Positions 14,550 to 63,000 of a stretch of DNA of 64,000 nucleotides are shown in pieces (the stretch's first letter is position 1; each line of letters begins with the position of its first letter). Source of the stretch: Salvia splendens (lineage: Eukaryota; Streptophyta; Magnoliopsida; Lamiales; Lamiaceae). The position numbers and the translations under genes are program-made. The stretch lies in contig NC_056035.1 in NCBI RefSeq assembly GCF_004379255.2, positions 28,783,208-28,847,207 on the forward strand. Direction: 5' to 3'. The notes under the pieces are model-generated. The model had not been told where the DNA came from. It worked only from the letters and a program-made list of their open reading frames with translations, and did not search any database.

Positions 14550-14724
14550 CCTCTCTCTTACTTTACTTATTTTTGTACTTTATTAATTTTCCATTAAAAC
14601 ACGTGTTGTTCGTAAATGAGACTATTTTTTGTGTACGGATGGAGTAGTATAATTTTTATAGACTTTTAGCATGTTGACATCCATAACTAAGTACGAGGAA
14701 GAATCCAAAAAAATTCTTTTTGTG

Positions 14725-15156
14725 TTCCAAGGTAACAATGCGTTTCCATATATGAGGCACATTTTTTTAGCATGTTGACATCCATAACTAAGCGACGCAT
14801 GTCCCTCGTAAATCTTTCAAATTAATGAAATGTATTAACTTCATGCATCTCTAGACGCATGAACGAATGAGGCTCAAGCGTCTTCCAATGGAATAGAATC
14901 AAGAGTTTTGAGCAGTCAAAGAAGAAGCAGATGAAAATCGTTCCAAGGTAACAATGCGTTTCCATATATGAGGCACATTTTTTTAGCATGTTGACATCCA
15001 TAACTAAGCGACGCATGTCCCTCGTGAATCTTTCAAATTAATGAAATGTATTAACTTCATGCATCTCTAGACGCATGAACGAATGAGACTCAAGCGTCTT
15101 CCAATGGAATAGAATCAAGAGTTTTGAGCAGTCAAAGAAGAAGCGGATGAAAATCG
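14725..15156. repeat. Two-copy 216-bp tandem duplication
   Basis: The segment starting ttccaaggtaacaatgcg at 14725 repeats at 14941 with only a handful of substitutions (for example gaggctcaag versus gagactcaag). An extra partial copy of its inner part (agcatgttgacatccataac) precedes it near 14669. The unit itself holds no convincing gene. High identity implies a recent duplication. Confidence 0.85.
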
Positions 15157-23011: not shown

Positions 23012-23157
23012 TGTAACGACCCGCTAAGCCGATATTATTATAAACTATATTATTATTAGCTTGATTATTTATATAATTGACTTTTATGCGATTTAAATCC
23101 GAGCTACGATAGATTGTCTTCATTGTTTGTTTGACGATAGGGAAGTGAGTAGAAAAC

Positions 23158-23201
<44 letters not shown>

Positions 23202-24743: not shown

Positions 24744-27492
24744 TAAAGATACAGTTGCAAGAACTGTTAGACTTGGGTTTTATTCGACCCAGTGTGTCAC
24801 CGTGGGGAGCGCCAGTGTTGTTCGTTAAGAAGAATGATGGAACGATGAGGATGTGCATCGACTATCGTGAGCTCAAGAAGATGACCTTGAAGGACAAGTA
24901 CCCACTACCGAGGATTGATGATTTGTTTGACCAACTTCGAGGAGCGAGCGTATTTTCAAAAATGGACTTGAGGTCGGGATATCATCAACTAAAGGTCCGA
25001 CAAGAGGATGTGCCTAAGACTGCTTTTCGCACTCGTTATGGCCATTATGAATTCGTCGTGATGCCATTTGGGCTGACCAACGCCCCGGCTGTCTTCATGG
25101 AAATGATGAACCGAGTTTTCCATGAGTATCTCGACAAGTTCATGTTAGTCTTCATCGACGATGTTTTAGTGTACTTGAAGAACGAGGAGGAACATGGATG
25201 GCATCTACAAACAGTGTTAGAAACGTTGCGAAAGGAGAAGCTTTATGCCAAGTTTAGTAAGTGCGAGTTTTGGTTGACTCGAGTGAACTTTCTTGGTCAT
25301 ATTGTGACGGCAAATGGAATCCAAGTAGACACAGCAAAGGTCGAGGCTGTGCAGAATTGGAAATCGCCAAAACCACCGAGTGAAATCCGCAGTTTCTTGG
25401 GATTGGCGGGATACTATCGACGTTTCATTGAAGGATTCTCTAAAATCGCGAGACCCATGACACAACTGTTGAAGAAAGGAATCAAAGTGGTTTGGACGCC
25501 GGAGTGCGAGGCAAGTTTTCAACTGTTGAAAGAGAAATTGACTACAGCACCAGTCCTAGCGGTACCCGAAGCCGACAAGGAGTTCGCCGTCTATACAGAT
25601 GCGTCGAAAGTAGGACTAGGATGTGTGTTAATGCAAGATGGAAAAGTGATAGCATACGCTTCCCGACAGTTGAGACCGAATGAATTGAATATTTCGACTC
25701 ATGATTTGGAGTTAGCAGCAGTGGTGCATGCACTGAAAATTTGGAGACACCATCTCTATGGAGTGAGATGCGAGATCTATACGGATCACAAGAGTCTCAA
25801 GTACTTCTTCGAGCAGAAGGAGCTGAACATGCGACAGCGACGTTGGTTGGAGATCGTGAAAGATTATGACTGTGGTATTCACTATCATCCAGGCAAGGCA
25901 AACGTAGTAGCCGATGCTTTGAGTAGGAAGAACCAACCTCAATTGGCTTATTTCCTAACGCAAGAGGAAGCGTTGATTCACGAATTCGACAGAATGAGAT
26001 TGGAAATAGTAAAAGTGCCCGAGCCAGTAGAAGGACGAATAGCGGCGCTAGTGATTGAGCCAGATTTGAGAACCAAGCTCATAGAAGCCCAACGACGTGA
26101 TGAGAAGTTGGAAGAATTACGTGTGAAGGTGAGAACCGAGAAGCTTGATCATTACCGTGAGGAGGCAGATAATGCTTTGACGTACGATGGGCGATTGTGT
26201 GTGCCGAGCGATGAGACGCTAAAAGATGAGATTTTGAGTGAAGCGCACGACACGCCTTACACTGCACACCCCGGAAGCACGAAGATGTATCGAGATTTGA
26301 AGCAACGTTTTTGGTGGAATGGAATGAAAGGAGACGTAGCGTCATATGTGGAACGATGTCTAGCATGCCAACAAGTGAAGGCCTTACACCAACGGCCATA
26401 TGGGAAGTTGCAACCACTCGAAACCCCCGAATGGAAGTGGGAGCATCTAGCTATGGATTTCGTGACGGGTTTGCCAAAGTCACAGAAGGGCAACACTGCG
26501 ATTTGGGTGATCATCGATCGACTAACTAAAAGCGCACACTTTTTACCAATTCGAATTACTTATGGCGCGGACAAATTAGCAAAACTCTACGTGAATGAGA
26601 TTGTGCGTTTGCATGGAGTGCCAGAGGCTATTGTGTCTGACCGCGATACGAAGTTCACATCAAAGTTTTGGATGAGTTTACAACGTGAATTGGGCACACA
26701 ACTGAACTTCAGCACTGCTTATCACCCGCAATCGGACGGACAGTCAGAAAGGACGATTCAAACGCTTGAGGATATGCTGCGAGCCGTTGCCTTAGATCGA
26801 GGGGAAAGTTATGAAACTGTTCTATTGTTGGTTGAATTCGCCTACAACAATAGCTACCAAGCGACGATCGATATGGCTCCGTATGAAGCCATGTATGGCA
26901 GGAAGTGTCAATCCCCACTCTATTGGGATGAAGTTGGCGAGAGAAGATGTTAGGATCCGACGCTATAAAGGAGATGACCGAAATTGTGCATCAAATCCGC
27001 GCAAGGATCAAGGAAGCTCAAGATAGGCAGAAGTCGTATGCTAACGTGCGTCGAAAGGAAATCAAATTCGACGTTGGTGACAAAGTGTTCTTGAAAGTAT
27101 CCCCGACGAGAGGAGTTGTGAGGTTTGGAGTGAAAGGCAAGCTGGAACCGCGTTTTGTAGGACCGTACGAGATTATCGATGAAGTAGGTCTTGTAGCTTA
27201 CCGCTTGGCGTTACCTCCCAGCTTTGGGAACGTGCACAACGTGTTCCATGTGTCACAGTTACGCAAGTACGTGTTCGACCCCAAGCATGTGATTCATCAA
27301 GAGGAAGTGATCCTAACCCCCGACATGAGCTACGAGGAAAGGCCCGAGGCAATCCTAAATCGGAAGGTACAAGAGTTGCGAAACAAGTCAATAGCGTCCG
27401 TGAAGGTGTTGTGGAAACACCATGGTCCCGAGGAAGCCACATAGGAGTTAGAAGATAAATTGAAAGAAAAGTTCCCCGAGTTGTTTATGTGA
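24744..27492 (+). pseudogene. Ty3/gypsy pol: RT, RNase H, integrase, chromodomain (5'-truncated, broken)
   Basis: Read in order: RT ([45 protein letters not shown] and the catalytic FIDDVLVY); the thumb/connection with [10 protein letters not shown]; RNase H ([39 protein letters not shown]); integrase zinc region and core ([61 protein letters not shown]); then GKLEPRFVGPYE and a chromodomain. Catalytic Asp residues of RT and the integrase DDE set are present. Breaks: a frameshift near 26945 and a TAG at 27442-27444 inside the chromodomain. The first codons after 24704 are LTR-A sequence read in frame. Confidence 0.88.
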
Positions 27493-34170: not shown

Positions 34171-34666
34171 GTTTGTTTTGTTTGTAAGTTCTGTTGTTAT
34201 GTGTTTTGTTGTGATCTGTTCCGTACTTCCCATTTTCCCCCTTCACTAGGATAGCTTGGGGACAAGCTTGAGTGAAGTGGGAGGGGGAGGGAGTCGTACT
34301 GTTGTGTTTCAATGTGAATATGTGTTTTTAGGTCTAGGATTTTGTTTTTATTTTGTTTTTAGGTCTAGGATTTGTTTTTATTTTGTGTGTCGCATGAGCT
34401 AGTGAAAATAATAAGGCAAGATCCCCTTAGTAAGAGCAATTGAAGATAGGATGCATGTCAACTTTGAGGCCTTTTTCCTTAATAAGCTGAATTCGGTTTG
34501 AATGAAGTGAGGACGATAGAAGATGCTTTAGATGACTTAGATGTGAAGCCCCACCATAAATGTGAGTTATAAGCCTATACACTTTGAGCTAACTTGTATA
34601 AAAAGGGGCCACCACTTGATGCTTAGGGAGTAGAGTCAGAAGAAGAAAAATAAAAAAATGGGTTCT

Positions 34667-34840
34667 GGAGGAATAAGCTGGACGAAGTCCAGGAAATGGA
34701 GGTATAAGCTGGACAAAGTCCAGGAAATGGAGGTATAAGCTGGACAAAGTCCAGGAAATGGAGGTATAAGCTGGACGAAGTCCAGGAGAGGAATAAAATT
34801 AAAAACAATCGGAGGTATAAGCTGGATGAAGTCCAGGGGA
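34667..34840 (+). repeat. 31-bp minisatellite with inner palindrome
   Basis: Four adjacent copies of ggaggtataagctggacaaagtccaggaaat (31 bases) plus a fifth displaced copy at about 34811-34840. Each unit contains CTGGAC(A/G)AAGTCCAG, a 6-bp stem with a 3-base loop. Element 1 has no equivalent, so this arose within this copy or subfamily. Confidence 0.85.
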
Positions 34841-35871
34841 AAAAATAAAGGGAAAAGAAATGAAAATATTCCAAGGGCAAGAGGCAATAGTTACCTGACC
34901 CAGGAAATAAAAAGGGCCTGTAGGAAGGAGAAACTGTAACACCCCTTACCCGGTAGGTAACCCACCGAATAAGTGATGTCACGTTTCAGTATCGAAAACC
35001 CGTGCTGAAATTTTTCCTTTTTCTTTTTAGCTTAAAAGCATAATTAAAATCTATTACATTTAAAAACTTAACATTTATCCAGCGGAAGGTTAAAGATTAA
35101 ACTATTACATAACATGCCACGACTACTAAACCAAGTTGACCACCAGTGACTCGCCAAAGATGCAAAGCTGCGCAACACCACTGACATAATGTCGACTCTA
35201 ACCTGCAGGGGGGAAAGAGGGGGAGTGAGCTCGAAAGCCCAGTAGCAATATCCAAACTACAGAATCCAACCCTCTCAGCTAAGACAATAGTAACTATAAT
35301 AACTACATTATTTCCTTTTTAATCTTTTGCTTGTTTTCATTTCAATTTCACAGATTTCCAAAATTACTTACAATCACATTATATCAAACTTATTTGTATT
35401 ATCGTCATACAACTTTTCCATATATTATTACTCATGTCTCTTCAGAGATTTCATTCTTAATGCCATTTCCTTATTATCTTGACTTATTATTACAATATAT
35501 ATATTCCAAATTCTCAGAATTTTCACACCAAAGCATACCTGTTCAGATACCCATATATATTCATCATATCATCCTCGTCATATTTCTCTTATGGTCTCTT
35601 GATAACATATTCATATATTTATTTCTATACTACAACATTTTCATTGTATCTTATAGCTTTGGTTTCTCCAGATTTCGCATATCATCATATATCATTTCGT
35701 ATCACATTTTTCTCATTTTACCATTTATTTTCGTATACTATTCTTCCGTGTTAATTACCCCGAGCGGGGACCGTTCAACATAAAATATCATTTCCTCCGT
35801 GAGGACTGATCAACAATCATATCATATATCATATTTCACAAATCACATATCACATATCACATATTACAGAT

Positions 35872-36320
35872 CCTTTATTCACAAGTCATCAGATATTAAT
35901 TTTTTCTTATCTTATCATATATTACAGATCATTTATTCAGAAATCATCAGATATTATTTTATCTTATATTATCATATATCACATATTACAGATTACAGAT
36001 CATTTATTCAGAAATCATCAGATATTATTTTATCTTATATTATCATATATCACGGATTACAGCTTACAGATCATTTATTCAGAAATCATCAGATATTATT
36101 TTATCTTATATTATCATATATCACAGATTACAGATTACAGATCATTTATTCAGAAATCATCAGATATTATTTTATCTTATATTATCATATATCACAGATT
36201 ACAGCTTACAGATCATTTATTCAGAAATCATCAGATATTATTTTATCTTATATTATCATATATCACAGATTACAGATTACAGATCCTTTATTCAGAAATC
36301 ATCAGATATTATTTTCTCTT
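35872..36320. repeat. 71-bp minisatellite inside LTR1 (seven units)
   Basis: Units are anchored on catttattcagaaatcatc at 35930, 36001, 36072, 36143 and 36214, with slightly divergent first and last units. Matching arrays of seven units occur in LTR2 and LTR4, but LTR3 has only three. LTR3 is shorter by 284 bases once a poly-T difference is allowed for, exactly four 71-bp units. Confidence 0.88.
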
Positions 36321-36420
36321 ATAGCCCCAATATCTGCTTGGTTTCAGGCAGGGTACACGGACCAGATCAGAAACAGAATCAGATGCAGACGCGGATTTTG
36401 TCCTCGAGAGGACTCCGCAC

Positions 36421-36543
36421 AGACCACCCATAGGGTGCAGACAGATAATCAGACCACCCATGAGGGTGCAGACAGATAATCAGACCACCCATGAGGGTGC
36501 GGACAGATAATCAAACCACCCATTAGGGTGCAGATCAGACAGA
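36421..36543. repeat. 31-bp hairpin-bearing repeat in the LTR (four units)
   Basis: Consensus agaccacccatgagggtgca plus gacagataatc, repeated at 36421 (30 bases), 36451, 36482 and 36513. CACCC and GGGTG inside each unit can pair. The same block is present in all four LTRs (41063, 45419 and 50061 onward). Confidence 0.85.
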
Positions 36544-37804
36544 TCAGATAGGGGCCCATCAGATAACAGACGATCCTCGTTTCGGTTATCCAGAAGACGA
36601 GTGATCACAGATAATGCAGCGCTGCTGTCCTATGGCATGCCAATTGTACCCAACACATATGACCAAGCAAACAGGACGTTTTATTTCATATTCTTCTTTC
36701 AAATCTCTTTTTCACATTTATTCCATTTCCAAATATCACTTCAGATAATCATTCTTATCGAATTCACAGACACTCTTTTTCATATATATTCAGATATTTT
36801 TTTTCATAATCTATTCAGACATATTTCACATTATTCGGATCTTCATAATTTATTACACTTCATTGCATATCATATCCATTGTCTTTATTCATATTCGTAC
36901 CATTTTTTTTTCCACAGATCATTCATATTAAAATTAATAAGAATCATAATAATCCACATATTAAATTATAAGCATATTTAAGCACATTATTTAAACATCT
37001 CACATATAATCACATTATAGCACACATCATCTCAACCTAAAGAATCGAAAACCATAGAGAGGATACGCTACCTCGCAGGCTTATGAACATAAGCCTATTT
37101 CACCTTGATACTTCTCTACCCTCTAAATCCACTCCTTTGTGATCAAAACGCACTATATGCTCCTTCGCTCGATTTGCTGGCGGATACAAGATTACCCGAT
37201 CGATTTACCGATTAAATGACAAATATTTGGAAATTAAAAAGCTTAAGCTTTTGGTCTTCCATGGAGAGGGGGAGGACGTGCTTCTGGCTGAAATGAGGGG
37301 GGGTTTGGAGTTGATGATAGACAAAAGAATTCTCTAGAGAATTCTAATCATTATTTAATTATTTAGTTAGTTTTTAAATAAATTAATTATCTTGTAACAT
37401 TTTATTGCCCTATCATATGATATCACATTTAGGAACTCTTTATATCATCATTTAGCATTTAAATTCTAGTTTAAGGCAAAATTATTCCTGTCTATATCTT
37501 CAAAAGTTTCGCCGATCGTTTTCGTTAAAAACTGAAATTATCGGCGATAGAAATTTTTTTAATTACCTTCAAATGGCCCAAAACAATTCCTCACATTATC
37601 AACAATTATTCTAGGCCATAATTTGTAATTTATAAAATTATTACCCCTTAGCTTCGATTTATGATTTTACACGGACAAAAGAAATTGCCGAAAATTGACT
37701 AATCGGCATTTCGTATCAAATTTATACCTTACGGTTTAACTTAACTACTATTCCTCACCACATATCCAAACCTTTTATTGGTGCCTATAATTCGGGATGT
37801 TACA

Positions 37805-39581
37805 ACTCATCCCCCCTAAAAGGAATTTCGTCCTCGAAATTCCCTCGGGTTTACATCATTCCTATAAGCGTCGCATATACGTATGCCATTCCACGACATC
37901 CTATATCCTCATCTACATAGCGTATCCTCACTTCCATAACCAAACACAGAATGACATACAAAATCACATAATCACATCTTAACACATAGCCACATTTTGC
38001 GATCACATAATAATATTATCATTATCTCTAATATATTTCAAGCACATTTGTCACATTATCATTTCTTTACATAGTAATTTCCATGTTATTTGCATCTTTT
38101 CTTTGTCCACATGAGGCGCACATATCATATTCATCACGCATATGTATAATTCACATACTCATCATATATTGTATAGTCCCAATTGCATAGTCCCTATTCG
38201 GGCACTTATAGCCGACGAAGGGTGCATTTCACTTTCCACATATCATCATTTCATTACGTTTTCCTTTATTATCATTCACAACACTTCTTATCTTTTCCCT
38301 TTTTCCTTTCTTAAGTCATCATGTAACATCATTCTCTTCATGTATTATCACTTATCAGTTTATTTACCACAATTTCGTATTAATTTATCTGATCAATTTC
38401 TAGCAAAAATTGGGCAGCGTTTTCTCTATAACCAGTGCTTCCCCAAAACCAACAAGATACAATGTTAATCACAGATTATCAAATCAAACCACCAAATCAC
38501 AACATAATTCAAATATCAAGTCAGTATTCATCAACAACCTATTTATTTTCAAAACTCATTCTTATCCATAACTAACACATTTACAGATCACAGACAACAC
38601 TTTCAACCAGAATACCATTTTATATCATATAGCTCAATTTCAAACTCATATTTTTAGACATATCTTATCATATACTATACAGCTCGCTTAGAGCATACAT
38701 TCCCATTTTCCATTTCATTTCTGAATCATCATTCGGTTCTAACATTTATATAGCTCGTATTCGAGCGCACACATAATTCTCACGGAGTTCACATTTCCAA
38801 TCATATAATTTATTGTCTTGCACGATTATTCAGTTCATATTTCCATCACATCACGTCATATCTCATATTGCCCGATTCGAAGTACACATGTAATCCATAT
38901 AGGGGCACACATGTTCAGATCATATCATTTATTTCTTATTCGTCGCATTTTCTCATTCGCACATTTATGGTTTTATTCATATAATGCCTTATAGTTTCAT
39001 ATGTTTTCATATCAATATTTATCATTTTGCCAAACACATTTCCTTTCACATATTTCTATACTTTTGTTTATCATTATAGGATATTACTTTATGACTCTTA
39101 ATCCATCTTATATCAGACAATCCACATACCTTTGTGAATTTTCGTGTTACACTTTTATATCATGATGGTCACTTAGTCTATAACTTACTTTCTTTCCATA
39201 TCATTCCTTTAACTCATTTTCTTCTCTTTTACTTATACTCTTTCATAATCTGCATATATTTATTAGTATCTTTCATTAGGACATACTTTTCATCAACATT
39301 TTCAGACCCATCCTCCCTGAATTTTTTTTTTAAATCTTTTACACATACCGACGCTACCGAGATTAGAGCTATATGGGGTGGCCAGTCCCATATAACATCT
39401 TTCTCGGTCACACGGGAAACTATGTCCCGTACCTTGTTAACTTCTTTCCACTTTAGACATAAGCAGCTGCATCGAGTCACTGGTACTAACAGACAATTAA
39501 ACCTATGTGGCATGTTTCTACACACTTTACTGAATCACTTCTTTCCAGAACCGCCTAAACCTAGGCTCTGATACCAAAACT
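37805..39581 (-). other. Internal region 1 of the tandem array
   Basis: On the minus strand it starts with the PBS at 39576-39565 (TGGTATCAGAGC) and ends at the purine tract TTTTAGGGGGGATGAG next to LTR1. The phrase ggaatttcgaggacgaaattcc before the tract is the standard end of Tekay/Del-type elements. The 1777 bp carry no gag or pol. The one open frame of note is 98 codons at 39229-39525. The remainder is AT-rich. Confidence 0.85.
39229..39525 (-). CDS. Small ORF of the non-autonomous element (98 aa), function unknown
   Basis: It begins about 40 bases downstream of the PBS, where gag would begin. Start MCRNMPHRFNCLLVPV; the middle KWKEVNKVRDIVSRVTEKDV and the C-terminal half (KDLKKKFREDGSENVDEKY) are charged and look like genuine protein. 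I recognise no domain. The same frame is intact in the third internal region (48228-48524), but the second has a stop at 44102-44104. It may be a vestige of gag or an unrelated frame. Coding status is unproven. Confidence 0.35.
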   Translation of the reverse strand: MCRNMPHRFNCLLVPVTRCSCLCLKWKEVNKVRDIVSRVTEKDVIWDWPPHIALISVASVCVKDLKKKFREDGSENVDEKYVLMKDTNKYMQIMKEYK

Positions 39582-42445
39582 TGTAACACCCCTTACCCGG
39601 TAGGTAACCCACCGAATAAGTGATGTCACGTTTCAGTATCGAAAACCCGTGCTGAAATTTTTCCTTTTTCTTTTTAGCTTAAAAGCATAATTAAAATCTA
39701 TTACATTTAAAAACTTAACATTTATCCAGCGGAAGGTTAAAGATTAAACTATTACATAACATGCCACGACTACTAAACCAAGTTGACCACCAGTGACTCG
39801 CCAAAGATGCAAAGCTGCGCAACACCACTGACATAATGTCGACTCTAACCTGCAGGGGGGAAAGAGGGGGAGTGAGCTCGAAAGCCCAGTAGCAATATCC
39901 AAACTACAGAATCCAACCCTCTCAGCTAAGACAATAGTAACTATAATAACTACATTATTTCCTTTTTAATCTTTTGCTTGTTTTCATTTCAATTTCACAG
40001 ATTTCCAAAATTACTTACAATCACATTATATCAAACTTATTTGTATTATCGTCATACAACTTTTCCATATATTCTTACTCATGTCTCTTCAGAGATTTCA
40101 TTCTTAATGCCATTTCCTTATTATCTTGACTTATTATTACAATATATATATTCCAAATTCTCAGAATTTTCACACCAAAGCATACCTGTTCAGATACCCA
40201 TATATATTCATCATATCATCCTCGTCATATTTCTCTTATGGTCTCTTGATAACATATTCATATATTTATTTCTATACTACAACATTTTCATTGTATCTTA
40301 TAGCTTTGGTTTCTCCAGATTTCGCATATCATCATATATCATTTCGTATCACATTTTTCTCATTTTACCATTTATTTTCGTATACTATTCTTCCGTGTTA
40401 ATTACCCCGAGCGGGGACCGTTCAACATAAAATATCATTTCCTCCGTGAGGACTGATCAACAATCATATCATATATCATATTTCACAAATCACATATCAC
40501 ATATCACATATTACAGATCCTTTATTCACAAGTCATCAGATATTAATTTTTTCTTATCTTATCATATATTACAGATCATTTATTCAGAAATCATCAGATA
40601 TTATTTTATCTTATATTATCATATATCACATATTACAGATTACAGATCATTTATTCAGAAATCATCAGATATTATTTTATCTTATATTATCATATATCAC
40701 GGATTACAGCTTACAGATCATTTATTCAGAAATCATCAGATATTATTTTATCTTATATTATCATATATCACAGATTACAGATTACAGATCATTTATTCAG
40801 AAATCATCAGATATTATTTTATCTTATATTATCATATATCACAGATTACAGCTTACAGATCATTTATTCAGAAATCATCAGATATTATTTTATCTTATAT
40901 TATCATATATCACAGATTACAGATCCTTTATTCAGAAATCATCAGATATTATTTTCTCTTATAGCCCCAATATCTGTTTGGTTTCAGGCAGGGTACACGG
41001 ACCAGATCAGAAACAGAATCAGATGCAGACGCGGATTTTGTCCTCGAGAGGACTCCGCACAGACCACCCATAGGGTGCAGACAGATAATCAGACCACCCA
41101 TGAGGGTGCAGACAGATAATCAGACCACCCATGAGGGTGCGGACAGATAATCAAACCACCCATTAGGGTGCAGATCAGACAGATCAGATAGGGGCCCATC
41201 AGATAACAGACGATCCTCGTTTCGGTTATCCAGAAGACGAGTGATCACAGATAATGCAGCGCTGCTGTCCTATGGCATGCCAATTGTACCCAACACATAT
41301 GACCAAGCAAACAGGACGTTTTATTTCATATTCTTCTTTCAAATCTCTTTTTCACATTTATTCCATTTCCAAATATCACTTCAGATAATCATTCTTATCG
41401 AATTCACAGACACTCTTTTTCATATATATTCAGATATTTTTTTTCATAATCTATTCAGACATATTTCACATTATTCGGATCTTCATAATTTATTACACTT
41501 CATTGCATATCATATCCATTGTCTTTATTCATATTCGTACCATTTTTTTTTTCCACAGATCATTCATATTAAAATTAATAAGAATCATAATAATCCACAT
41601 ATTAAATTATAAGCATATTTAAGCACATTATTTAAACATCTCACATATAATCACATTATAGCACACATCATCTCAACCTAAAGAATCGAAAACCATAGAG
41701 AGGATACGCTACCTCGCAGGCTTATGAACATAAGCCTATTTCACCTTGATACTTCTCTACCCTCTAAATCCACTCCTTTGTGATCAAAACGCACTATATG
41801 CTCCTTCGCTCGATTTGCTGGCGGATACAAGATTACCCGATCGATTTACCGATTAAATGACAAATATTTGGAAATTAAAAAGCTTAAGCTTTTGGTCTTC
41901 CATGGAGAGGGGGAGGACGTGCTTCTGGCTGAAATGAGGGGGGGTTTGGAGTTGATGATAGACAAAAGAATTCTCTAGAGAATTCTAATCATTATTTAAT
42001 TATTTAGTTAGTTTTTAAATAAATTAATTATCTTGTAACATTTTATTGCCCTATCATATGATATCACATTTAGGAACTCTTTATATCATCATTTAGCATT
42101 TAAATTCTAGTTTAAGGCAAAATTATTCCTGTCTATATCTTCAAAAGTTTCGCCGATCGTTTTCGTTAAAAACTGAAATTATCGGCGATAGAAATTTTTT
42201 TAATTACCTTCAAATGGCCCAAAACAATTCCTCACATTATCAACAATTATTCTAGGCCATAATTTGTAATTTATAAAATTATTACCCCTTAGCTTCGATT
42301 TATGATTTTACACGGACAAAAGAAATTGCCGAAAATTGACTAATCGGCATTTCGTATCAAATTTATACCTTACGGTTTAACTTAACTACTATTCCTCACC
42401 ACATATCCAAACCTTTTATTGGTGCCTATAATTCGGGATGTTACA
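39582..42445 (-). repeat. LTR2 of the tandem array (2864 bp, mosaic)
   Basis: The left part shares the LTR4 states (attcttactc, short last minisatellite spacer, tatctgtttgg). The right part shares the LTR1 states (cctcgtttcgg, cacatttattcc, ttcggatctt, tacccgatcg, ggtttggag, ttcgttaaaa). It has a private extra T in the poly-T near 41551. Confidence 0.9.
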
Positions 42446-44223
42446 ACTCATCCCCCCTAAAAGGAATTTCGTCCTCGAAATTCCCTCGGGTTTACATCAT
42501 TCCTATAAGCGTCGCATATACGTATGCCATTCCACGACATCCTATATCCTCATCTACATAGCGTATCCTCACTTCCATAACCAAACACAGAATGACATAC
42601 AAAATCACATAATCACATCTTAACACATAGCCACATTTTGCGATCACATAATAATATTATCATTATCTCTAATATATTTCAAGCACATTTGTCACATTAT
42701 CATTTCTTTACATAGTAATTTCCATGTTATTTGCATCTTTTCTTTGTCCACATGAGGCGCACATATCATATTCATCACGCATATGTATAATTCACATACT
42801 CATCATATATTGTATAGTCCCAATTGCATAGTCCCTATTCGGGCACTTATAGCCGACGAAGGGTGCATTTCACTTTCCACATATCATCATTTCATTACGT
42901 TTTCCTTTATTATCATTCACAACACTTCTTATCTTTTCCCTTTTTCCTTTCTTAAGTCATCATGTAACATCATTCTCTTCATGTATTATCACTTATCAGT
43001 TTATTTACCACAATTTCGTATTAATTTATCTGATCAATTTCTAGCAAAAATTGGGCAGCGTTTTCTCTATAACCAGTGCTTCCCCAAAACCAACAAGATA
43101 CAATGTTAATCACAGATTATCAAATTAAACCACCAAATCACAACATAATTCAAATATCAAGTCAGTATTCATCAACAACCATATTTATTTTCAAAACTCA
43201 TTCTTATCCATAACTAACACATTTACAGATCACAGACAACACTTTCAACCAGAATACCATTTTATATCATATAGCTCAATTTCAAACTCATATTTTTAGA
43301 CATATCTTATCATATACTATACAGCTCGCTTAGAGCATACATTCCCATTTTCCATTTCATTTCTGAATCATCATTCGGTTCTAACATTTATATAGCTCGT
43401 ATTCGAGCGCACACATAATTCTCACGGAGTTCACATTTCCAATCATATAATTTATTGTCTTGCACGATTATTCAGTTCATATTTCCATCACATCACGTCA
43501 TATCTCATATTGCCCGATTCGAAGTACACATGTAATCCATATAGGGGCACACATGTTCAGATCATATCATTTATTTCTTATTCGTCGCATTTTCTCATTC
43601 GCACATTTATGGTTTTATTCATATAATGCCTTATAGTTTCATATGTTTTCATATCAATATTTATCATTTTGCCAAACACATTTCCTTTCACATATTTCTA
43701 TACTTTTGTTTATCATTATAGGATATTACTTTATGACTCTTAATCCATCTTATATCAGACAATCCACATACCTTTGTGAATTTTCGTGTTACACTTTTAT
43801 ATCATGATGGTCACTTAGTCTATAACTTACTTTCTTTCCATATCATTCCTTTAACTCATTTTCTTCTCTTTTACTTATACTCTTTCATAATCTGCATATA
43901 TTTATTAGTATCTTTCATTAGGACATACTTTTCATCAACATTTTCAGACCCATCCTCCCTGAATTTTTTTTTTAAATCTTTTACACATACCGACGCTACC
44001 GAGATTAGAGCTATATGGGGTGGCCAGTCCCATATAACATCTTTCTCGGTCACACGGGAAACTATGTCCCGTACCTTGTTAACTTCTTTCCACTTTAGAC
44101 ATTAGCAGCTGCATCGAGTCACTGGTACTAACAGACAATTAAACCTATGTGGCATGTTTCTACACACTTTACTGAATCACTTCTTTCCAGAACCGCCTAA
44201 ACCTAGGCTCTGATACCAAAACT
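42446..44223 (-). other. Internal region 2 of the tandem array
   Basis: It is 1778 bp and nearly identical to internal 1. The PBS lies at 44207-44218. Private changes include caaattaaacc near 43124 and attagcag at 44101, which puts a stop (44102-44104 on the minus strand) in the 98-codon frame. Confidence 0.85.
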
Positions 44224-46802
44224 TGTAACACCCCTTACCCGGTAGGTAACCCACCGAATAAGTGATGTCACGTTTCAGTATCGAAAACCCGTGCTGAAAT
44301 TTTTCCTTTTTCTTTTTAGCTTAAAAGCATAATTAAAATCTATTACATTTAAAAACTTAACATTTATCCAGCGGAAGGTTAAAGATTAAACTATTACATA
44401 ACATGCCACGACTACTAAACCAAGTTGACCACCAGTGACTCGCCAAAGATGCAAAGCTGCGCAACACCACTGACATAATGTCGACTCTAACCTGCAGGGG
44501 GGAAAGAGGGGGAGTGAGCTCGAAAGCCCAGTAGCAATATCCAAACTACAGAATCCAACCCTCTCAGCTAAGACAATAGTAACTATAATAACTACATTAT
44601 TTCCTTTTTAATCTTTTGCTTGTTTTCATTTCAATTTCACAGATTTCCAAAATTACTTACAATCACATTATATCAAACTTATTTGTATTATCGTCATACA
44701 ACTTTTCCATATATTCTTACTCATGTCTCTTCAGAGATTTCATTCTTAATGCCATTTCCTTATTATCTTGACTTATTATTACAATATATATATTCCAAAT
44801 TCTCAGAATTTTCACACCAAAGCATACCTGTTCAGATACCCATATATATTCATCATATCATCCTCGTCATATTTCTCTTATGGTCTCTTGATAACATATT
44901 CATATATTTATTTCTATACTACAACATTTTCATTGTATCTTATAGCTTTGGTTTCTCCAGATTTCGCATATCATCATATATCATTTCGTATCACATTTTT
45001 CTCATTTTACCATTTATTTTCGTATACTATTCTTCCGTGTTAATTACCCCGAGCGGGGACCGTTCAACATAAAATATCATTTCCTCCGTGAGGACTGATC
45101 AACAATCATATCATATATCATATTTCACAAATCACATATCACATATCACATATTACAGATCCTTTATTCACAAGTCATCAGATATTAATTTTTTCTTATC
45201 TTATCATATATTACAGATCATTTATTCAGAAATCATCAGATATTATTTTATCTTATATTATCATATATCACAGATTACAGATCCTTTATTCAGAAATCAT
45301 CAGATATTATTTTCTCTTATAGCCCCAATATCTGTTTGGTTTCAGGCAGGGTACACGGACCAGATCAGAAACAGAATCAGATGCAGACGCGGATTTTGTC
45401 CTCGAGAGGACTCCGCACAGACCACCCATAGGGTGCAGACAGATAATCAGACCACCCATGAGGGTGCAGACAGATAATCAGACCACCCATGAGGGTGCGG
45501 ACAGATAATCAAACCACCCATTAGGGTGCAGATCAGACAGATCAGATAGGGGCCCATCAGATAACAGACGATCCTCGTTTCGGTTATCCAGAAGACGAGT
45601 GATCACAGATAATGCAGCGCTGCTGTCCTATGGCATGCCAATTGTACCCAACACATATGACCAAGCAAACAGGACGTTTTATTTCATATTCTTCTTTCAA
45701 ATCTCTTTTTCACATTTATTCCATTTCCAAATATCACTTCAGATAATCATTCTTATCGAATTCACAGACACTCTTTTTCATATATATTCAGATATTTTTT
45801 TTCATAATCTATTCAGACATATTTCACATTATTCGGATCTTCATAATTTATTACACTTCATTGCATATCATATCCATTGTCTTTATTCATATTCGTACCA
45901 TTTTTTTTTCCACAGATCATTCATATTAAAATTAATAAGAATCATAATAATCCACATATTAAATTATAAGCATATTTAAGCACATTATTTAAACATCTCA
46001 CATATAATCACATTATAGCACACATCATCTCAACCTAAAGAATCGAAAACCATAGAGAGGATACGCTACCTCGCAGGCTTATGAACATAAGCCTATTTCA
46101 CCTTGATACTTCTCTACCCTCTAAATCCACTCCTTTGTGATCAAAACGCACTATATGCTCCTTCGCTCGATTTGCTGGCGGATACAAGATTACCCGATCG
46201 ATTTACCGATTAAATGACAAATATTTGGAAATTAAAAAGCTTAAGCTTTTGGTCTTCCATGGAGAGGGGGAGGACGTGCTTCTGGCTGAAATGAGGGGGG
46301 GTTTGGAGTTGATGATAGACAAAAGAATTCTCTAGAGAATTCTAATCATTATTTAATTATTTAGTTAGTTTTTAAATAAATTAATTATCTTGTAACATTT
46401 TATTGCCCTATCATATGATATCACATTTAGGAACTCTTTATATCATCATTTAGCATTTAAATTCTAGTTTAAGGCAAAATTATTCCTGTCTATATCTTCA
46501 AAAGTTTCGCCGATCGTTTTCGTTAAAAACTGAAATTATCGGCGATAGAAATTTTTTTAATTACCTTCAAATGGCCCAAAACAATTCCTCACATTATCAA
46601 CAATTATTCTAGGCCATAATTTGTAATTTATAAAATTATTACCCCTTAGCTTCGATTTATGATTTTACACGGACAAAAGAAATTGCCGAAAATTGACTAA
46701 TCGGCATTTCGTATCAAATTTATACCTTACGGTTTAACTTAACTACTATTCCTCACCACATATCCAAACCTTTTATTGGTGCCTATAATTCGGGATGTTA
46801 CA
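44224..46802 (-). repeat. LTR3 of the tandem array (2579 bp, mosaic, contracted minisatellite)
   Basis: It has the same mosaic of diagnostic states as LTR2 (LTR4-like left, LTR1-like right) but only three 71-bp units. The contraction is precisely four repeat units, as expected from slippage or unequal exchange within the array. Confidence 0.9.
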
Positions 46803-48580
46803 ACTCATCCCCCCTAAAAGGAATTTCGTCCTCGAAATTCCCTCGGGTTTACATCATTCCTATAAGCGTCGCATATACGTATGCCATTCCACGACATCCT
46901 ATATCCTCATCTACATAGCGTATCCTCACTTCCATAACCAAACACAGAATGACATACAAAATCACATAATCACATCTTAACACATAGCCACATTTTGCGA
47001 TCACATAATAATATTATCATTATCTCTAATATATTTCATGCACATTTGTCACATTATCATTTCTTTACATAGTAATTTCCATGTTATTTGCATCTTTTCT
47101 TTGTCCACATGAGGCGCACATATCATATTCATCACGCATATGTATAATTCACATACTCATCATATATTGTATAGTCCCAATTGCATAGTCCCTATTCGGG
47201 CACTTATAGCCGACGAAGGGTGCATTTCACTTTCCACATATCATCATTTCATTACGTTTTCCTTTATTATCATTCACAACACTTCTTATCTTTTCCCTTT
47301 TTCCTTTCTTAAGTCATCATGTAACATCATTCTCTTCATGTATTATCACTTATCAGTTTATTTACCACAATTTCGTATTAATTTATCTGATCAATTTCTA
47401 GCAAAAATTGGGCAGCGTTTTCTCTATAACCAGTGCTTCCCCAAAACCAACAAGATACAATGTTAATCACAGATTATCAAATCAAACCACCAAATCACAA
47501 CATAATTCAAATATCAAGTCAGTATTCATCAACAACCATATTTATTTTCAAAACTCATTCTTATCCATAACTAACACATTTACAGATCACAGACAACACT
47601 TTCAACCAGAATACCATTTTATATCATATAGCTCAATTTCAAACTCATATTTTTAGACATATCTTATCATATACTATACAGCTCGCTTAGAGCATACATT
47701 CCCATTTTCCATTTCATTTCTGAATCATCATTCGGTTCTAACATTTATATAGCTCGTATTCGAGCGCACACATAATTCTCACGGAGTTCACATTTCCAAT
47801 CATATAATTTATTGTCTTGCACGATTATTCAGTTCATATTTCCATCACATCACGTCATATCTCATATTGCCCGATTCGAAGTACACATGTAATCCATATA
47901 GGGGCACACATGTTCAGATCATATCATTTATTTCTTATTCGTCGCATTTTCTCATTCGCACATTTATGGTTTTATTCATATAATGCCTTATAGTTTCATA
48001 TGTTTTCATATCAATATTTATCATTTTGCCAAACACATTTCCTTTCACATATTTCTATACTTTTGTTTATCATTATAGGATATTACTTTATGACTCTTAA
48101 TCCATCTTATATCAGACAATCCACATACCTTTGTGAATTTTCGTGTTACACTTTTATATCATGATGGTCACTTAGTCTATAACTTACTTTCTTTCCATAT
48201 CATTCCTTTAACTCATTTTCTTCTCTTTTACTTATACTCTTTCATAATCTGCATATATTTATTAGTATCTTTCATTAGGACATACTTTTCATCAACATTT
48301 TCAGACCCATCCTCCCTGAATTTTTTTTTTAAATCTTTTACACATACCGACGCTACCGAGATTAGAGCTATATGGGGTGGCCAGTCCCATATAACATCTT
48401 TCTCGGTCACACGGGAAACTATGTCCCGTACCTTGTTAACTTCTTTCCACTTTAGACATAAGCAGCTGCATCGAGTCACTGGTACTAACAGACAATTAAA
48501 CCTATGTGGCATGTTTCTACACACTTTACTGAATCACTTCTTTCCAGAACCGCCTAAACCTAGGCTCTGATACCAAAACT
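46803..48580 (-). other. Internal region 3 of the tandem array
   Basis: It is 1778 bp, with PBS at 48564-48575 and an intact 98-codon frame at 48228-48524. A private change tttcatgcacat near 47037 (tttcaagcacat elsewhere) distinguishes it. Confidence 0.85.
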
Positions 48581-51442
48581 TGTAACACCCCTTACCCGGT
48601 AGGTAACCCACCGAATAAGTGATGTCACGTTTCAGTATCGAAAACCCGTGCTGAAATTTTTCCTTTTTCTTTTAGCTTAAAAGCATAATTAAAATCTATT
48701 ACATTTAAAAACTTAACATTTATCCAGCGGAAGGTTAAAGATTAAACTATTACATAACATGCCACGACTACTAAACCAAGTTGACCACCAGTGACTCGCC
48801 AAAGATGCAAAGCTGCGCAACACCACTGACATAATGTCGACTCTAACCTGCAGGGGGGAAAGAGGGGGAGTGAGCTCGAAAGCCCAGTAGCAATATCCAA
48901 ACTACAGAATCCAACCCTCTCAGCTAAGACAATAGTAACTATAATAACTACATTATTTCCTTTTTAATCTTTTGCTTGTTTTCATTTCAATTTCACAGAT
49001 TTCCAAAATTACTTACAATCACATTATATCAAACTTATTTGTATTATCGTCATACAACTTTTCCATATATTCTTACTCATGTCTCTTCAGAGATTTCATT
49101 CTTAATGCCATTTCCTTATTATCTTGACTTATTATTACAATATATATATTCCAAATTCTCAGAATTTTCACACCAAAGCATACCTGTTCAGATACCCATA
49201 TATATTCATCATATCATCCTCGTCATATTTCTCTTATGGTCTCTTGATAACATATTCATATATTTATTTCTATACTACAACATTTTCATTGTATCTTATA
49301 GCTTTGGTTTCTCCAGATTTCGCATATCATCATATATCATTTCGTATCACATTTTTCTCATTTTACCATTTATTTTCGTATACTATTCTTCCGTGTTAAT
49401 TACCCCGAGCGGGGACCGTTCAACATAAAATATCATTTCCTCCGTGAGGACTGATCAACAATCATATCATATATCATATTTCACAAATCACATATCACAT
49501 ATCACATATTACAGATCCTTTATTCACAAGTCATCAGATATTAATTTTTTCTTATCTTATCATATATTACAGATCATTTATTCAGAAATCATCAGATATT
49601 ATTTTATCTTATATTATCATATATCACATATTACAGATTACAGATCATTTATTCAGAAATCATCAGATATTATTTTATCTTATATTATCATATATCACGG
49701 ATTACAGCTTACAGATCATTTATTCAGAAATCATCAGATATTATTTTATCTTATATTATCATATATCACAGATTACAGATTACAGATCATTTATTCAGAA
49801 ATCATCAGATATTATTTTATCTTATATTATCATATATCACAGATTACAGCTTACAGATCATTTATTCAGAAATCATCAGATATTATTTTATCTTATATTA
49901 TCATATATCACAGATTACAGATCCTTTATTCAGAAATCATCAGATATTATTTTCTCTTATAGCCCCAATATCTGTTTGGTTTCAGGCAGGGTACACGGAC
50001 CAGATCAGAAACAGAATCAGATGCAGACGCGGATTTTGTCCTCGAGAGGACTCCGCACAGACCACCCATAGGGTGCAGACAGATAATCAGACCACCCATG
50101 AGGGTGCAGACAGATAATCAGACCACCCATGAGGGTGCGGACAGATAATCAAACCACCCATTAGGGTGCAGATCAGACAGATCAGATAGGGGCCCATCAG
50201 ATAACAGACGATCCTCGCTTCGGTTATCCAGAAGACGAGTGATCACAGATAATGCAGCGCTGCTGTCCTATGGCATGCCAATTGTACCCAACACATATGA
50301 CCAAGCAAACAGGACGTTTTATTTCATATTCTTCTTTCAAATCTCTTTTTCACATATATTCCATTTCCAAATATCACTTCAGATAATCATTCTTATCGAA
50401 TTCACAGACACTCTTTTTCATATATATTCAGATATTTTTTTTCATAATCTATTCAGACATATTTCACATTATTCAGATCTTCATAATTTATTACACTTCA
50501 TTGCATATCATATCCATTGTCTTTATTCATATTCGTACCATTTTTTTTTCCACAGATCATTCATATTAAAATTAATAAGAATCATAATAATCCACATATT
50601 AAATTATAAGCATATTTAAGCACATTATTTAAACATCTCACATATAATCACATTATAGCACACATCATCTCAACCTAAAGAATCGAAAACCATAGAGAGG
50701 ATACGCTACCTCGCAGGCTTATGAACATAAGCCTATTTCACCTTGATACTTCTCTACCCTCTAAATCCACTCCTTTGTGATCAAAACGCACTATATGCTC
50801 CTTCGCTCGATTTGCTGGCGGATACAAGATTACCCAATCGATTTACCGATTAAATGACAAATATTTGGAAATTAAAAAGCTTAAGCTTTTGGTCTTCCAT
50901 GGAGAGGGGGAGGACGTGCTTCTGGCTGAAATGAGGGGGGGTTTAGAGTTGATGATAGACAAAAGAATTCTCTAGAGAATTCTAATCATTATTTAATTAT
51001 TTAGTTAGTTTTTAAATAAATTAATTATCTTGTAACATTTTATTGCCCTATCATATGATATCACATTTAGGAACTCTTTATATCATCATTTAGCATTTAA
51101 ATTCTAGTTTAAGGCAAAATTATTCCTGTCTATATCTTCAAAAGTTTCGCCGATCGTTTTCATTAAAAACTGAAATTATCGGCGATAGAAATTTTTTTAA
51201 TTACCTTCAAATGGCCCAAAACAATTCCTCACATTATCAACAATTATTCTAGGCCATAATTTGTAATTTATAAAATTATTACCCCTTAGCTTCGATTTAT
51301 GATTTTACACGGACAAAAGAAATTGCCGAAAATTGACTAATCGGCATTTCGTATCAAATTTATACCTTACGGTTTAACTTAACTACTATTCCTCACCACA
51401 TATCCAAACCTTTTATTGGTGCCTATAATTCGGGATGTTACA
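48581..51442 (-). repeat. LTR4 of the tandem array (2862 bp, 5' LTR)
   Basis: Private right-half states: cctcgcttcgg near 50218, cacatatattcc near 50356, ttcagatctt near 50475, tacccaatcg near 50835, ggtttagag near 50942 and ttcattaaaa near 51160. One T is lost near 48670. It has seven minisatellite units. In minus orientation it is the 5' LTR of the insertion. Confidence 0.9.
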
Positions 51443-51447
51443 GAAAC

Positions 51448-55939: not shown

Positions 55940-56490
55940 GGGAATTATAAGTGTTATTTTTTAGTTGTTGACATTTTAATACAAGTTGTTGACATTTGAT
56001 ATTCTCGAAATTCAAATGTGAATTGTAAGTGTTATTTTTTAGTTGTTGACATTTTAATACGAGTTGTTGACATTTGATATTCTCGGTATTCAAAGGTGAA
56101 TTGTAAGTGTTGTTTTTTAGTTGTTGACATTTTAATACGAGTTGTTGACATTTGATATTCTCGGTATTTATACGTGAATTGTAAGTGTTATTTTTTAGTT
56201 GTTGACATTTTAATACGAGTTGTTGACATTTGATATTCTCGGTATTGATACGTGAATTGTAATTGTTATTTTTTAGTTGTTGACATTTTATTACGAGTTG
56301 TTGACATTTGATATTCTCGAGATTCAAATGTGAATTATAAGTGTTATTTTTTAGTTGTTGACATTTTAATACGAGTTGTTGACATTTGATATTCTCGGTA
56401 TTCAAATGTGAATTGTAAGTGTTATTTTTTAGTTGTTGACATTTTAATACGAGCTGTTGACATTTGATATTCTGGCTATTGAAATGAAAT
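55940..56490. repeat. 78-bp minisatellite (seven units)
   Basis: Seven consecutive copies of a 78-base unit containing attttttagttgttgacattt, taatacgagttgttgacatt and gatattctcggtattc. Each unit holds two inner copies of gttgttgacattt. Because the unit is a multiple of three it creates a 193-codon minus-strand frame of repeated KCQQLVLKCQQLKNNTYN, which I regard as a by-product. Confidence 0.88.
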
Positions 56491-60017: not shown

Positions 60018-63000
60018 TTACTCATTTCTAACGAACAAGTCTGGGTATTTCTCTTTCATTTTATCCTCGAGTTCCCAAGTAGCCTCCTCGTGACCATGAT
60101 GTTTTCAAAGCACTTTCACGGAAACGATTGACTTATTCCTCAACTCCTGCACTTTCCTGTCCAGAATAGCTTTGGGCTTTTCCTCGTAACTCAAGTCGAG
60201 ATTCAAAAGCATTTCCTCTTGGTGAACCACGTGTTTGGGATCGAACACGTACTTTCGTAATTGTGACACATGGAAAACGTTATGCACAGTCCCAAAACTC
60301 GGTGGTAGTTCCAACCTATACGCTACGGGTCCCACCTTCTCAAGAATTTCATAAGGCCCTACGTATCGTGGCTTCAACTTCCCCTTTACACCAAACCTCG
60401 TTATTCCCTTCGACGGAGATACTTTCAAGAACACCTTATCTCCAGTATTGAACTGTAAATCTGTACGCCGAACATCAGCATACGACTTCTGTCGGTCTTG
60501 AGCTTCTTTTATCCTTTGTCGAATTTGCCGCACAATCTCAATCATCTCTTCGACCGAATCTGGCCCGAGTATTCTTCTTTCACCAACCTCATCCCAGTAG
60601 AGTGGTGATCTACACTTCTCCCGTACAATGCTTCATATGGGGCCATATTTATTGTCGCCTGGAAACTGTTGTTGTAGGCCAACTCGATCAACGGTAGTAC
60701 AACTTCCCAATTTTCTCCTCTGTCGAGAACCACGGCTCTCAACATGTCCTCGAGAGTTTGAATCGTTCTCTCGGACTGTCCATCGGTTTGTGGATGGAAA
60801 GCAGTACTAAAATTCAGTCGTGTACCAAGCTCTCGTTGCAGACTTATCCAAAACCTTGAAGCGAACCTTGTATCTCGGTCTGACGTAATTGTTACTGGCA
60901 CCCCATGTAGCCGAATGATTTCTTTCACATAAATCTGGGCCAGTTTGTCGGATCCATAAGTTATAGGGATAGGTATAAAATGCGCACTCTTGGTGAGGCG
61001 GTCTATGATTACCCAAATGGTCGTATTCCCTTGCCGGGTCTTTGGTAAACCTGTCACAAAATCCATAGCGATATGTTCCCATTTCTACTCGGGAATCTCC
61101 AATGGTTGCAACTTCCCATAGGGTCGTTGATGCAAAGCTTTTACTTGTTGACACGCCAAACATTTCTCTACAAATGAAGCTATGTCCCTCTTCATTCCAT
61201 CCCACCAGAATGATCCTTTCAAATCCTGGTACATCTTTGTACTTCCAGGATGAGCGGTGTATAGAGTCTCGTGTGCCTCGGTCAGAATTTCATTTTGAAG
61301 TCCTTCATCGCTTGGCACACATAGTCTCCCCTCGTAGGTGAGAGCATTATCAGCCTCCTCTCGAAATTTCTCTTGTTCGCCCTTCCTAACCTTCAGTTGA
61401 ACTTTCTCCAAATTTTCATCATTTCGTTGTCCTTCTATTATCCTTGTTCCCAGATCGGATGCAATTACCAAGGTGGCGATCTTTCCCTTCACGGTCTCCG
61501 GAGCTCTCACTACTTCCAATCGCATCTTGCTAAATTCGCGAATCAACTCCGCTTCCTGAGTGAGAAATGTCGCCAACTGTGGTTGGGCTTTCCAGCTCAA
61601 TGCATCTGCCACTACGTTTGCTTTGCCGGGATGATAGTGAATGCCACAGTCATAATCCTTGACTAATTCGAGCTGTCTGCATTGCCTCATGTTCAAGTCT
61701 TTCTGTTCGAAGAAGTATTTCAGGGCTTGTGGTCGGTAAAAATCTCACACCGAACTTCATAGAGATGGTGCCTCCAAATCTTCAACGCGTGTACAACGGC
61801 CGCTAGTTCTAAGTCATGAGTAGGGTAGTTTAACTCGTGTGGCCTTAACTGCCGTGAAGCATAGGCAATCACCTTACCGTTCTGCATCAAAACACATCCC
61901 AGTCCAACTTTCGACGCATCAGTGTAAACCACATAGTCTACCCCTGGTTCCGGCACGGCTAAAATAGGAGCGGTGGTCAACTTCTCCTTCAACAATTGGA
62001 AGCTAGCCTCACACTCTGGTGTCCAATTGACCTTGGTCCCCTTCTTCAGTTGTTGAGTCATCGGCCTTGCGATTTTAGAAAATCCTTCAATAAATCTCCG
62101 GTAGTATCCTGCCAGTCCAAAAAAACTCCGAATCTAGTTTGGGGTCTTTGGCGCCTTCCACTGTTGTACGGCCTCCACCTTTGCAGGTTCGACTCGAATC
62201 CCTTCGGCCGTCACAATATGCCCCAGAAAATTCACTTCCTTTAGCCAGAAGTCACACTTACTGAACTTGGCGTACAACTTCTCCATTCATAGTGTTTCCA
62301 ACGTGATCTTTAGGTGCTCCTCATGTTCCTTTTCATCCTTCGAGTAAACCAGCACATCATCTATGAATACCAGGATGAACTTGTCCAAGTATGGATGGAA
62401 TACTCGATTCATTAAATCCATAAATACTGCCGGTGCATTTGTTAGTCCAAACGGCATTACTACAAACTCATAATGCCCATACCTTGTTCGGAATGCCGTC
62501 TTGGGTATGTCTTCCCTTCGTACCCTCAGCTGGTGATATCCTGACCTTAAATCCATTTTTGAAAATACTCCTGCTCCCCTGAGTTGGTCGAACAGGTCAT
62601 CTATTCTCGGCAGCGGATATTTGTTCTTGAGAGTCAATTTGTTCAGTTCCCGATAATCTATGCACATTCTCAGTGTCCCATCTTTCTTCTTCACAAACAG
62701 CACATGTGCTCCCCATGGCGATACACTGGGTCGGATAAAACCCAAGTCATGTAGTTCTTGTAGCTGGATTTTGAGTTCTTCCAACTCCTTCGGTGCCATC
62801 CTATATGGTGCTTTCGATACTGGTGCGGCTCCTGGTTCCAGATCGATAGTAAATTCCAACTGTCGGTCAGGCGGAGGGCCTGGCAAAGCATCGGGAAATA
62901 CGTCGGGAAACTCACGTACTACAGCCACATCTTCCACTTTCCTTTCTTTCTTGTCATGTCCTTGTAGATACACGAGATAGGCCGGACGCCCCTTTCTAAT

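What the first reader, a model, noticed from the sequence alone, without database searches (positions are those of the whole stretch)
34935..51442. A four-LTR, three-internal tandem retrotransposon array at a single insertion site
LTR-internal-LTR-internal-LTR-internal-LTR with one flanking 5-bp duplication (GAAAC at 34930-34934 and 51443-51447). Ordinary insertions have two LTRs. Three unit lengths (4647, 4642 and 4357 bp) plus a terminal LTR amplify one insertion into 16.5 kb. The copies differ at only a few positions, so the expansion is recent.
Basis: seen in the sequence. Interest (0 to 1): 0.82.

Follow-up and report, generated by a model that had tools for sequence, protein, structure and literature searches.

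The report
Retrotransposon insertion multiplied in place
One retrotransposon insertion in this genome assembly carries four end repeats and three cores instead of two and one, as do most core-bearing insertions of its family that were found, and the patchwork of the inner repeats suggests that the extra copies likely arose in place, by unequal exchange after the element had landed.

Summary
The window holds LTR-INT-LTR-INT-LTR-INT-LTR at 34935-51442, with one 5-bp duplication (GAAAC) outside and none at the inner junctions. The element reads on the minus strand; no coding domain was found in the reading frames tested.
Of 13 insertions of this family found with a core, 9 are multimers (3 to 6 LTRs) and 4 are ordinary. 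Six more are solo LTRs. All 18 insertions with both ends carry one matching 5-bp duplication.
Whether such arrays land whole or form after landing was left open for rice in 2025. Here the variant patterns favour recombination after landing. In the informative arrays the inner LTR matches the last LTR on its left part and the first LTR on its right part (37 of 40 site pairs, p=0.0016; one of five arrays is contrary). At 16 of 45 polarised sites the inner LTR shares a derived base with one outer LTR only, which insertion of a finished multimer would not give. Inner LTRs carry fewer private changes than outer ones.
The array is a new member of a known kind. The unusual points are the multimer share of the family and the readable mechanism. 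All of it rests on one assembly without reads.

The parts
34930..34934 (.). Left copy of the 5-bp target site duplication, GAAAC
34935..37804 (-). LTR1 (3' LTR in the sense of the element), 2870 bp
35921..36323 (-). 71-bp minisatellite in LTR1, 5.7 copies; LTR3 has lost 4 units (284 bp)
36337..36580 (.). Interval in LTR1 coordinates where the inner LTRs switch from LTR4-like (left) to LTR1-like (right); equivalent 40977-41220 in LTR2 and 45335-45578 in LTR3
   Evidence: alignment, bases
37805..39581 (-). INT1, 1777 bp, no Pfam domain in the ORFs tested
37808..37821 (-). Polypurine tract of INT1 (also 42449-42462 and 46806-46819)
   Evidence: the role is inferred from position and composition
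39565..39576 (-). Primer binding site TGGTATCAGAGC on the minus strand, tRNA-iMet type (also 44207-44218 and 48564-48575)
   Evidence: the tRNA assignment is recalled
39582..42445 (-). LTR2, inner, mosaic
42446..44223 (-). INT2, 1778 bp
44224..46802 (-). LTR3, inner, mosaic, with the 284-bp loss
46803..48580 (-). INT3, 1778 bp
48581..51442 (-). LTR4 (5' LTR in the sense of the element), 2862 bp
51443..51447 (.). Right copy of the target site duplication, GAAAC

Best explanation
This is one insertion of an LTR retrotransposon without detected coding domains that carries four LTRs and three internal regions, and the extra units were likely made in place by unequal homologous exchange between its own LTRs after insertion. 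Inferred steps: an ordinary two-LTR element landed and made the 5-bp duplication. Its two LTRs then drifted apart by a few mutations. The LTR on one chromatid or homologue then paired with the other LTR on its partner, and an exchange gave a three-LTR product on one side and a solo LTR on the other. A further exchange between whole units gave four LTRs. Shown: the layout, the single duplication, the mosaic inner LTRs with one switch point, the same pattern in other arrays of the family, and solo LTRs with intact duplications elsewhere in the genome. Not shown: which partner (sister chromatid or homologue) was used, and the event itself.
For: (1) One outer target duplication, none inside. (2) Mosaic inner LTRs. 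In the window, LTR1 alone has A35427, a 7-bp insertion and C36337 on the left, while LTR4 alone differs at six substitutions on the right, so both inner LTRs are LTR4-like on the left and LTR1-like on the right. Over the five arrays that hold both site classes (A, E, F, G, H), 37 of 40 site pairs are in the order that exchange predicts, permutation p=0.0016. (3) Shared derived bases: at 17 of 45 polarised sites the inner LTRs share a derived base with one outer LTR only, 11 of them in array G. I count 16, because the base of the F site is also present at locus K. (4) In five comparisons of three complete LTRs (D, E, F, G, H), 4 substitutions are inner-only against 36 that separate the outer LTRs; one third is expected at equal age, p=0.0006. 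(5) Complete internal regions are identical within arrays C, D, E, F and G although the outer LTRs differ at 6 of 3193 sites in E and 18 of 3188 in G. (6) The reciprocal product exists in the family: six solo LTRs, each with a matching 5-bp duplication; recombination within one chromatid would give these too.
Against: Array H is contrary: its single last-private substitution lies among first-private ones (the 3 discordant pairs), and its two internal regions differ at 6 of 1777 sites, more than the 3.35 expected at equal age. In the window array a 1-base deletion private to LTR4 lies on the left side; indels were left out of the ordering test. Arrays C and I could not enter the ordering test because outer LTRs are truncated, D has only one site, and the truncated first LTR of B was used on its left part only. 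Several gene conversions acting on a multimer inserted whole could imitate part of the pattern. All loci come from one assembly without reads.
Confidence: 0.8

Rival explanations
1. The multimer was made before integration (read-through RNA of a tandem copy, or joined cDNA) and inserted whole.
For: It also gives one outer duplication. PMC11899658 (discussion read) and PMC7215508 (passages) hold it possible, and multi-unit transcripts of Cassandra are reported there. The high multimer share of the family (9 of 13) would fit a multimer that copies itself. An inner LTR of A and one of C are of like length (2579 and 2584 bp).
Against: Reverse transcription makes the two outer LTRs alike at birth (established knowledge), so a derived base shared by the inner LTR and one outer LTR only is not expected, yet 16 of 45 polarised sites are of that kind. 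Inner LTRs are less changed than outer ones. The two short inner LTRs of A and C differ in the spacing of their minisatellite units, so they are not clearly one inherited form.
Confidence: 0.08
2. Assembly artefact: the repeat was traversed too often, or two haplotypes were joined end to end through the LTR.
For: No reads were available. A haplotype join through an LTR would give a mosaic inner LTR of the same kind, and complete internal regions are identical in five arrays.
Against: The window has three cores each with its own mark, and in the five-core array on C4 four of the five complete LTRs carry unique marks, more than two haplotypes can give; some marks are single-base indels. Nine loci are affected, while 8 loci of a related family show one core each (a capped list).
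Confidence: 0.06
3. Several independent insertions, nested or next to each other.
For: None beyond the repeat of units.
Against: No inner target duplications in the window, shared inner LTRs, and one matching outer duplication at all 8 multimers that could be tested.
Confidence: 0.01
4. A one-LTR circle of the element recombined into the resident copy (integrase-independent addition).
For: It gives the same layout and would also leave one duplication. If the circle came from the same locus it would give the same mosaic.
Against: In 8 of 9 arrays all complete cores share one or more bases found at no other locus (for example E at 4 sites, I at 6), so a circle from another copy is unlikely. A circle from the same locus is not excluded.
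Confidence: 0.05

Closest known systems
Tandem LTR-retrotransposon structures of plants (Morales-Diaz et al. 2025, PMC11899658; abstract, background, methods, results and discussion sections read)
   Same: LTRs alternating with internal regions, shared inner LTRs, one 5-bp outer duplication, polymorphic two-LTR, tandem and solo forms.
   Different: There the 28 clear rice cases keep coding domains and the origin is left open. Here no coding domain was found, the multimer is the commonest core-bearing form of one family, and variant order points to an origin.
Tandemly arrayed TRIMs, including maize Wukong (PMC4528315) and the plant survey (PMC4717578), passages read
   Same: Small non-autonomous elements in arrays of three to seven LTRs; unequal crossing over proposed for Wukong.
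   Different: TRIMs are miniature; here intact LTRs are 2.6-3.8 kb. Wukong has 15 multimers among 89 intact elements, here 9 of 13.
Cassandra tandem arrays (PMC7215508, passages read)
   Same: Non-coding element with tandem arrays of shared LTRs.
   Different: Cassandra LTRs carry 5S rRNA sequence; the Rfam scan of this window at gathering thresholds found no RNA family. The authors report no differences between units that would tell the mechanisms apart; here such differences exist.
Three-LTR HERV-K (HML-2) forms (PMC10742618, one figure legend read)
   Same: Homologous LTR recombination drawn as giving either a three-LTR duplicate or a solo LTR.
   Different: Coding human provirus; only the principle is shared.

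Membership tests
Tandem LTR-retrotransposon array | LTRs alternate with internal regions, beginning and ending with an LTR | tested here: met
Tandem LTR-retrotransposon array | Single outer 5-bp duplication, none at inner junctions | tested here: met
Tandem LTR-retrotransposon array | Confirmed by spanning long reads | not testable with these tools
   no reads held
LTR retrotransposon | TG...CA ends, primer binding site and polypurine tract next to the LTRs | tested here: met
Ty3/gypsy lineage (Tekay or other) | Coding domains in lineage order | tested here: not met
   no Pfam match in four ORFs of the unit at E up to 1 nor in one LTR ORF of unit 2; shorter frames not scanned; lineage left open
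TRIM | Miniature size, short LTRs (recalled limit: a few hundred bases) | tested here: not met
   LTR 2579-2870 bp, INT 1777-1778 bp
LARD | Long LTRs round a long conserved non-coding core (recalled: about 4 kb LTR, 3.5 kb core) | tested here: inconclusive
   long LTRs and no coding domain found, but a shorter core
Cassandra | 5S rRNA sequence in the LTR | tested here: not met
   no Rfam match at gathering threshold in the window

The most novel reading that the evidence does not exclude
The LTR of this family acts as a recombination hotspot, so that the normal fate of an insertion is to become a multimer or a solo LTR within a short time. The family would be an in-place amplifier that turns transposon insertions into young satellite-like arrays without further transposition.
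Probability: 0.22. Interest if true: 0.7.

Novelty: new member of a known kind. Interest (0 to 1): 0.5.

Why it matters
Tandem LTR arrays are reported as common and polymorphic in plants, but the 2025 study that says so could not tell insertion of a finished multimer from recombination after insertion. This family has many young copies with just enough differences to read the order of events, and it points to recombination. Its multimer share (9 of 13 found) is far above published genome-wide figures (14 of 488 in Arabidopsis thaliana), and its multimer to solo ratio is near one (9 to 6), as reciprocal exchange would give. It is a usable system for measuring how a single insertion seeds a tandem array.

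Tried and rejected
Rejected: nested or adjacent independent insertions (no inner duplications); a multimer lineage that moves whole (shared-derived sites); the 71-bp minisatellite as the common exchange point (switch points lie in different parts of the LTR, outside it in A, E, F and G); coding capture in the LTR or core (no Pfam match in the ORFs scanned); RNA families or tRNAs in the window (none at the thresholds used).
Tried without result: the LTR-end pattern search of the genome did not complete, so LTR copies that lost their start are not counted. Age comparison of single and multimer insertions showed no clear difference (outer LTR differences 0, 0, 4, 7 in the four singles; 1, 3, 6, 7, 8, 18 in six multimers). 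Nine paper searches were made; three gave nothing on the subject, and one for mosaic or crossover evidence in tandem LTR elements listed three papers on other subjects by title. The host was not identified; that it is a plant is inferred from the element type and is recalled knowledge.
Full report
What is there. Four LTRs and three internal regions alternate from 34935 to 51442, between two copies of GAAAC. The bases at the inner junctions are the primer-site side and the polypurine side of the element, not target duplications. The element reads on the minus strand: TGGTATCAGAGC on that strand follows each LTR that has a core downstream, and a purine tract precedes each LTR that has a core upstream. 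The tRNA-iMet assignment is recalled. Four ORFs of the unit gave no Pfam match at E up to 1; shorter frames were not scanned. That the element is non-autonomous is inferred.

Differences between units. The four LTRs differ at 8 substitution columns and four indels, the three internal regions at 3 substitutions and one 1-base indel. The short third unit has lost 284 bp, four units of a 71-bp minisatellite that lies in the LTRs.

The family in the genome. The window lies in an 806-Mb assembly at C4:28783208-28847207. A search with most of the internal region found 26 full-length matches and one partial copy of the family. They fall in 13 insertions: the window (A, 4 LTRs/3 INTs), C4 at 8.98 Mb (B, 6/5, first LTR with a large deletion), C10 at 4.79 Mb (C, 3/2, left LTR cut to 27 bp), C10 at 8.07 Mb (D, 4/3, third LTR and third core partly deleted), C3 at 38.58 Mb (E, 3/2), C8 at 1.15 Mb (F, 3/2), C10 at 27.90 Mb (G, 3/2), C8 at 17.14 Mb (H, 3/2), C14 at 6.98 Mb (I, 3/2, both outer LTRs internally deleted), and four ordinary two-LTR insertions J, K, M, N on C18, C11, C2 and C6. 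So 9 of 13 are multimers. The search scored 40 of 125 first-look candidates, so the count is a lower bound.

Solo LTRs. A search with part of the LTR scored 40 of 673 candidates. A 41-base LTR-start pattern with up to 3 mismatches gave 47 places: 38 in the 13 insertions, 6 elsewhere, and 3 with the same 3 mismatches that I did not examine. The 6 were fetched; all are solo LTRs with a matching 5-bp duplication. Duplications match at 8 of 8 testable multimers, 4 of 4 singles and 6 of 6 solos; array C has lost its left end and is the ninth multimer. LTRs that lack an intact start are missed by this count.

How unusual the share is. Published counts read as passages: Arabidopsis thaliana 474 two-LTR, 10 three-LTR and 4 larger elements, 883 solo LTRs; maize chromosome 10, 4512 normal and 142 complex (PMC5379124); maize Wukong 15 of 89 (PMC4528315). 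Against these, 9 of 13 gives Fisher p of 1e-10, 2e-11 and 0.0002, and the multimer to solo ratio 9:6 against 14:883 gives 3e-12. These tests set a single young family, picked because one array was seen, against whole genomes of mixed age and other detection methods, so they show contrast and are not calibrated. A related family in the same genome shows one core at each of 8 loci where matches cover most of the core (C8, C19, C10, C9, C5, two on C2, and C17 at 7.47 Mb), p=0.005 against 9 of 13. Four further partial or weak places were not counted (C17 at 7.61, C15 at 22.6, C4 at 2.39, C9 at 23.32 Mb). One of the 8 was fetched: its LTRs are at least 3.5 kb, 99.9% identical, with the same kind of 71-bp minisatellite, so long LTRs alone may not explain the difference.

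Order of events. If a two-LTR insertion first gathers mutations and then undergoes unequal exchange between its LTRs, each inner LTR must match the last LTR left of one point and the first LTR right of it. I classed substitutions outside the minisatellite in seven arrays. Both classes of site occur in A, E, F, G and H. In A, E, F and G every site pair is in the predicted order (33 of 33); in H it is 4 of 7; together 37 of 40, permutation p=0.0016. The switch lies between LTR1 positions 36337 and 36580 in the window and in other parts of the LTR in E, F and G, so there is no common exchange point. B fits as far as it was read: two left sites separate the first LTR from all others, and the last LTR alone has two right substitutions and a shorter minisatellite. 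D has one site. C and I could not be tested.

Why not a multimer that landed whole. Reverse transcription makes the two outer LTRs alike (established knowledge of retroelements). A derived base shared by inner LTRs and one outer LTR must then be explained by later copying. There are 17 such sites of 45 polarised (A 2, B 1, E 1, F 1, G 11, H 1); I discount F because locus K has the same base. Most come from one array, G. In D, E, F, G and H, 4 substitutions are inner-only against 36 that separate the outer LTRs, where a third is expected at equal age (p=0.0006). First and last complete internal regions in A, D, E, F, G and H differ at 7 sites where 14.5 are expected at the age of the outer LTRs, scaled by the slower core (p=0.024); H alone goes the other way. 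Complete internal regions are identical in C, D, E, F and G. Gene conversion is frequent between plant LTRs (PMC7251063, passages) and could blur these patterns, but it gives no reason for the same left-right order in four arrays.

Assembly. No reads were available. The three cores of the window array each have a private mark, and in the five-core array four of five complete LTRs have private marks, which two haplotypes alone cannot give; some marks are single-base indels. For the three-LTR arrays a join of two haplotypes through the LTR would look the same as a real exchange and cannot be excluded from sequence.

Comparison with print. PMC11899658 (abstract, background, methods, results and discussion read) describes the same layout in rice and tandem structures in cotton, almond and Arabidopsis, and states that it could not tell a complex insertion from recombination. 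PMC4717578 and PMC4528315 describe tandem TRIMs (passages), PMC7215508 Cassandra arrays (passages). My search for papers that use mosaic or crossover evidence for this question gave none by title; that is one search of one open library.

I lowered the main explanation from 0.82 to 0.80, because the solo LTRs, which I had counted against the circle rival, can also arise within one chromatid or when a circle is excised.

Verdict. A real array by the assembly, a known kind of structure, best explained by unequal exchange in place. The open point is why this family does it so often.

Noticed in passing
16208-17899 and 23012-24746: Direct repeat pair, 93% identical, beginning TGTAACGACCC, LTR-like; a reverse transcriptase, RNase H and integrase reading frame (24704-26953) begins at the end of the second copy.
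   Followed up: partly
60542-61741 minus strand: Integrase zinc-binding and core domain fragments of another retroelement.
   Followed up: no
55942-56486: Seven copies of a 78-bp tandem repeat.
   Followed up: no
14724-15156: Tandem duplication of a 216-bp unit, 98% matches.
   Followed up: no
34666-34787: 31-bp unit repeated 3.9 times, ending about 150 bases before the array.
   Followed up: no
LTR position about 2234 (window 37168): Two LTR subtypes: loci A, C, H and K lack about 955 bp that the other LTRs of the family carry at this point.
   Followed up: partly
L009, L013, L015-L016, L026-L027: LTRs or units of four arrays are truncated (B first LTR, C first LTR, D third LTR and core, I both outer LTRs) while the other units there are complete.
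   Followed up: partly
L032 (C8:12158501-12168000): Related family with one core and no ORF of 140 or more codons; LTRs at least 3.5 kb at 99.9% identity; one core at each of 8 loci seen.
   Followed up: partly
35283-36479 plus strand and copies: Reading frames of 166 and up to 231 codons run antisense in the LTRs; no Pfam match for those of LTR1.
   Followed up: partly
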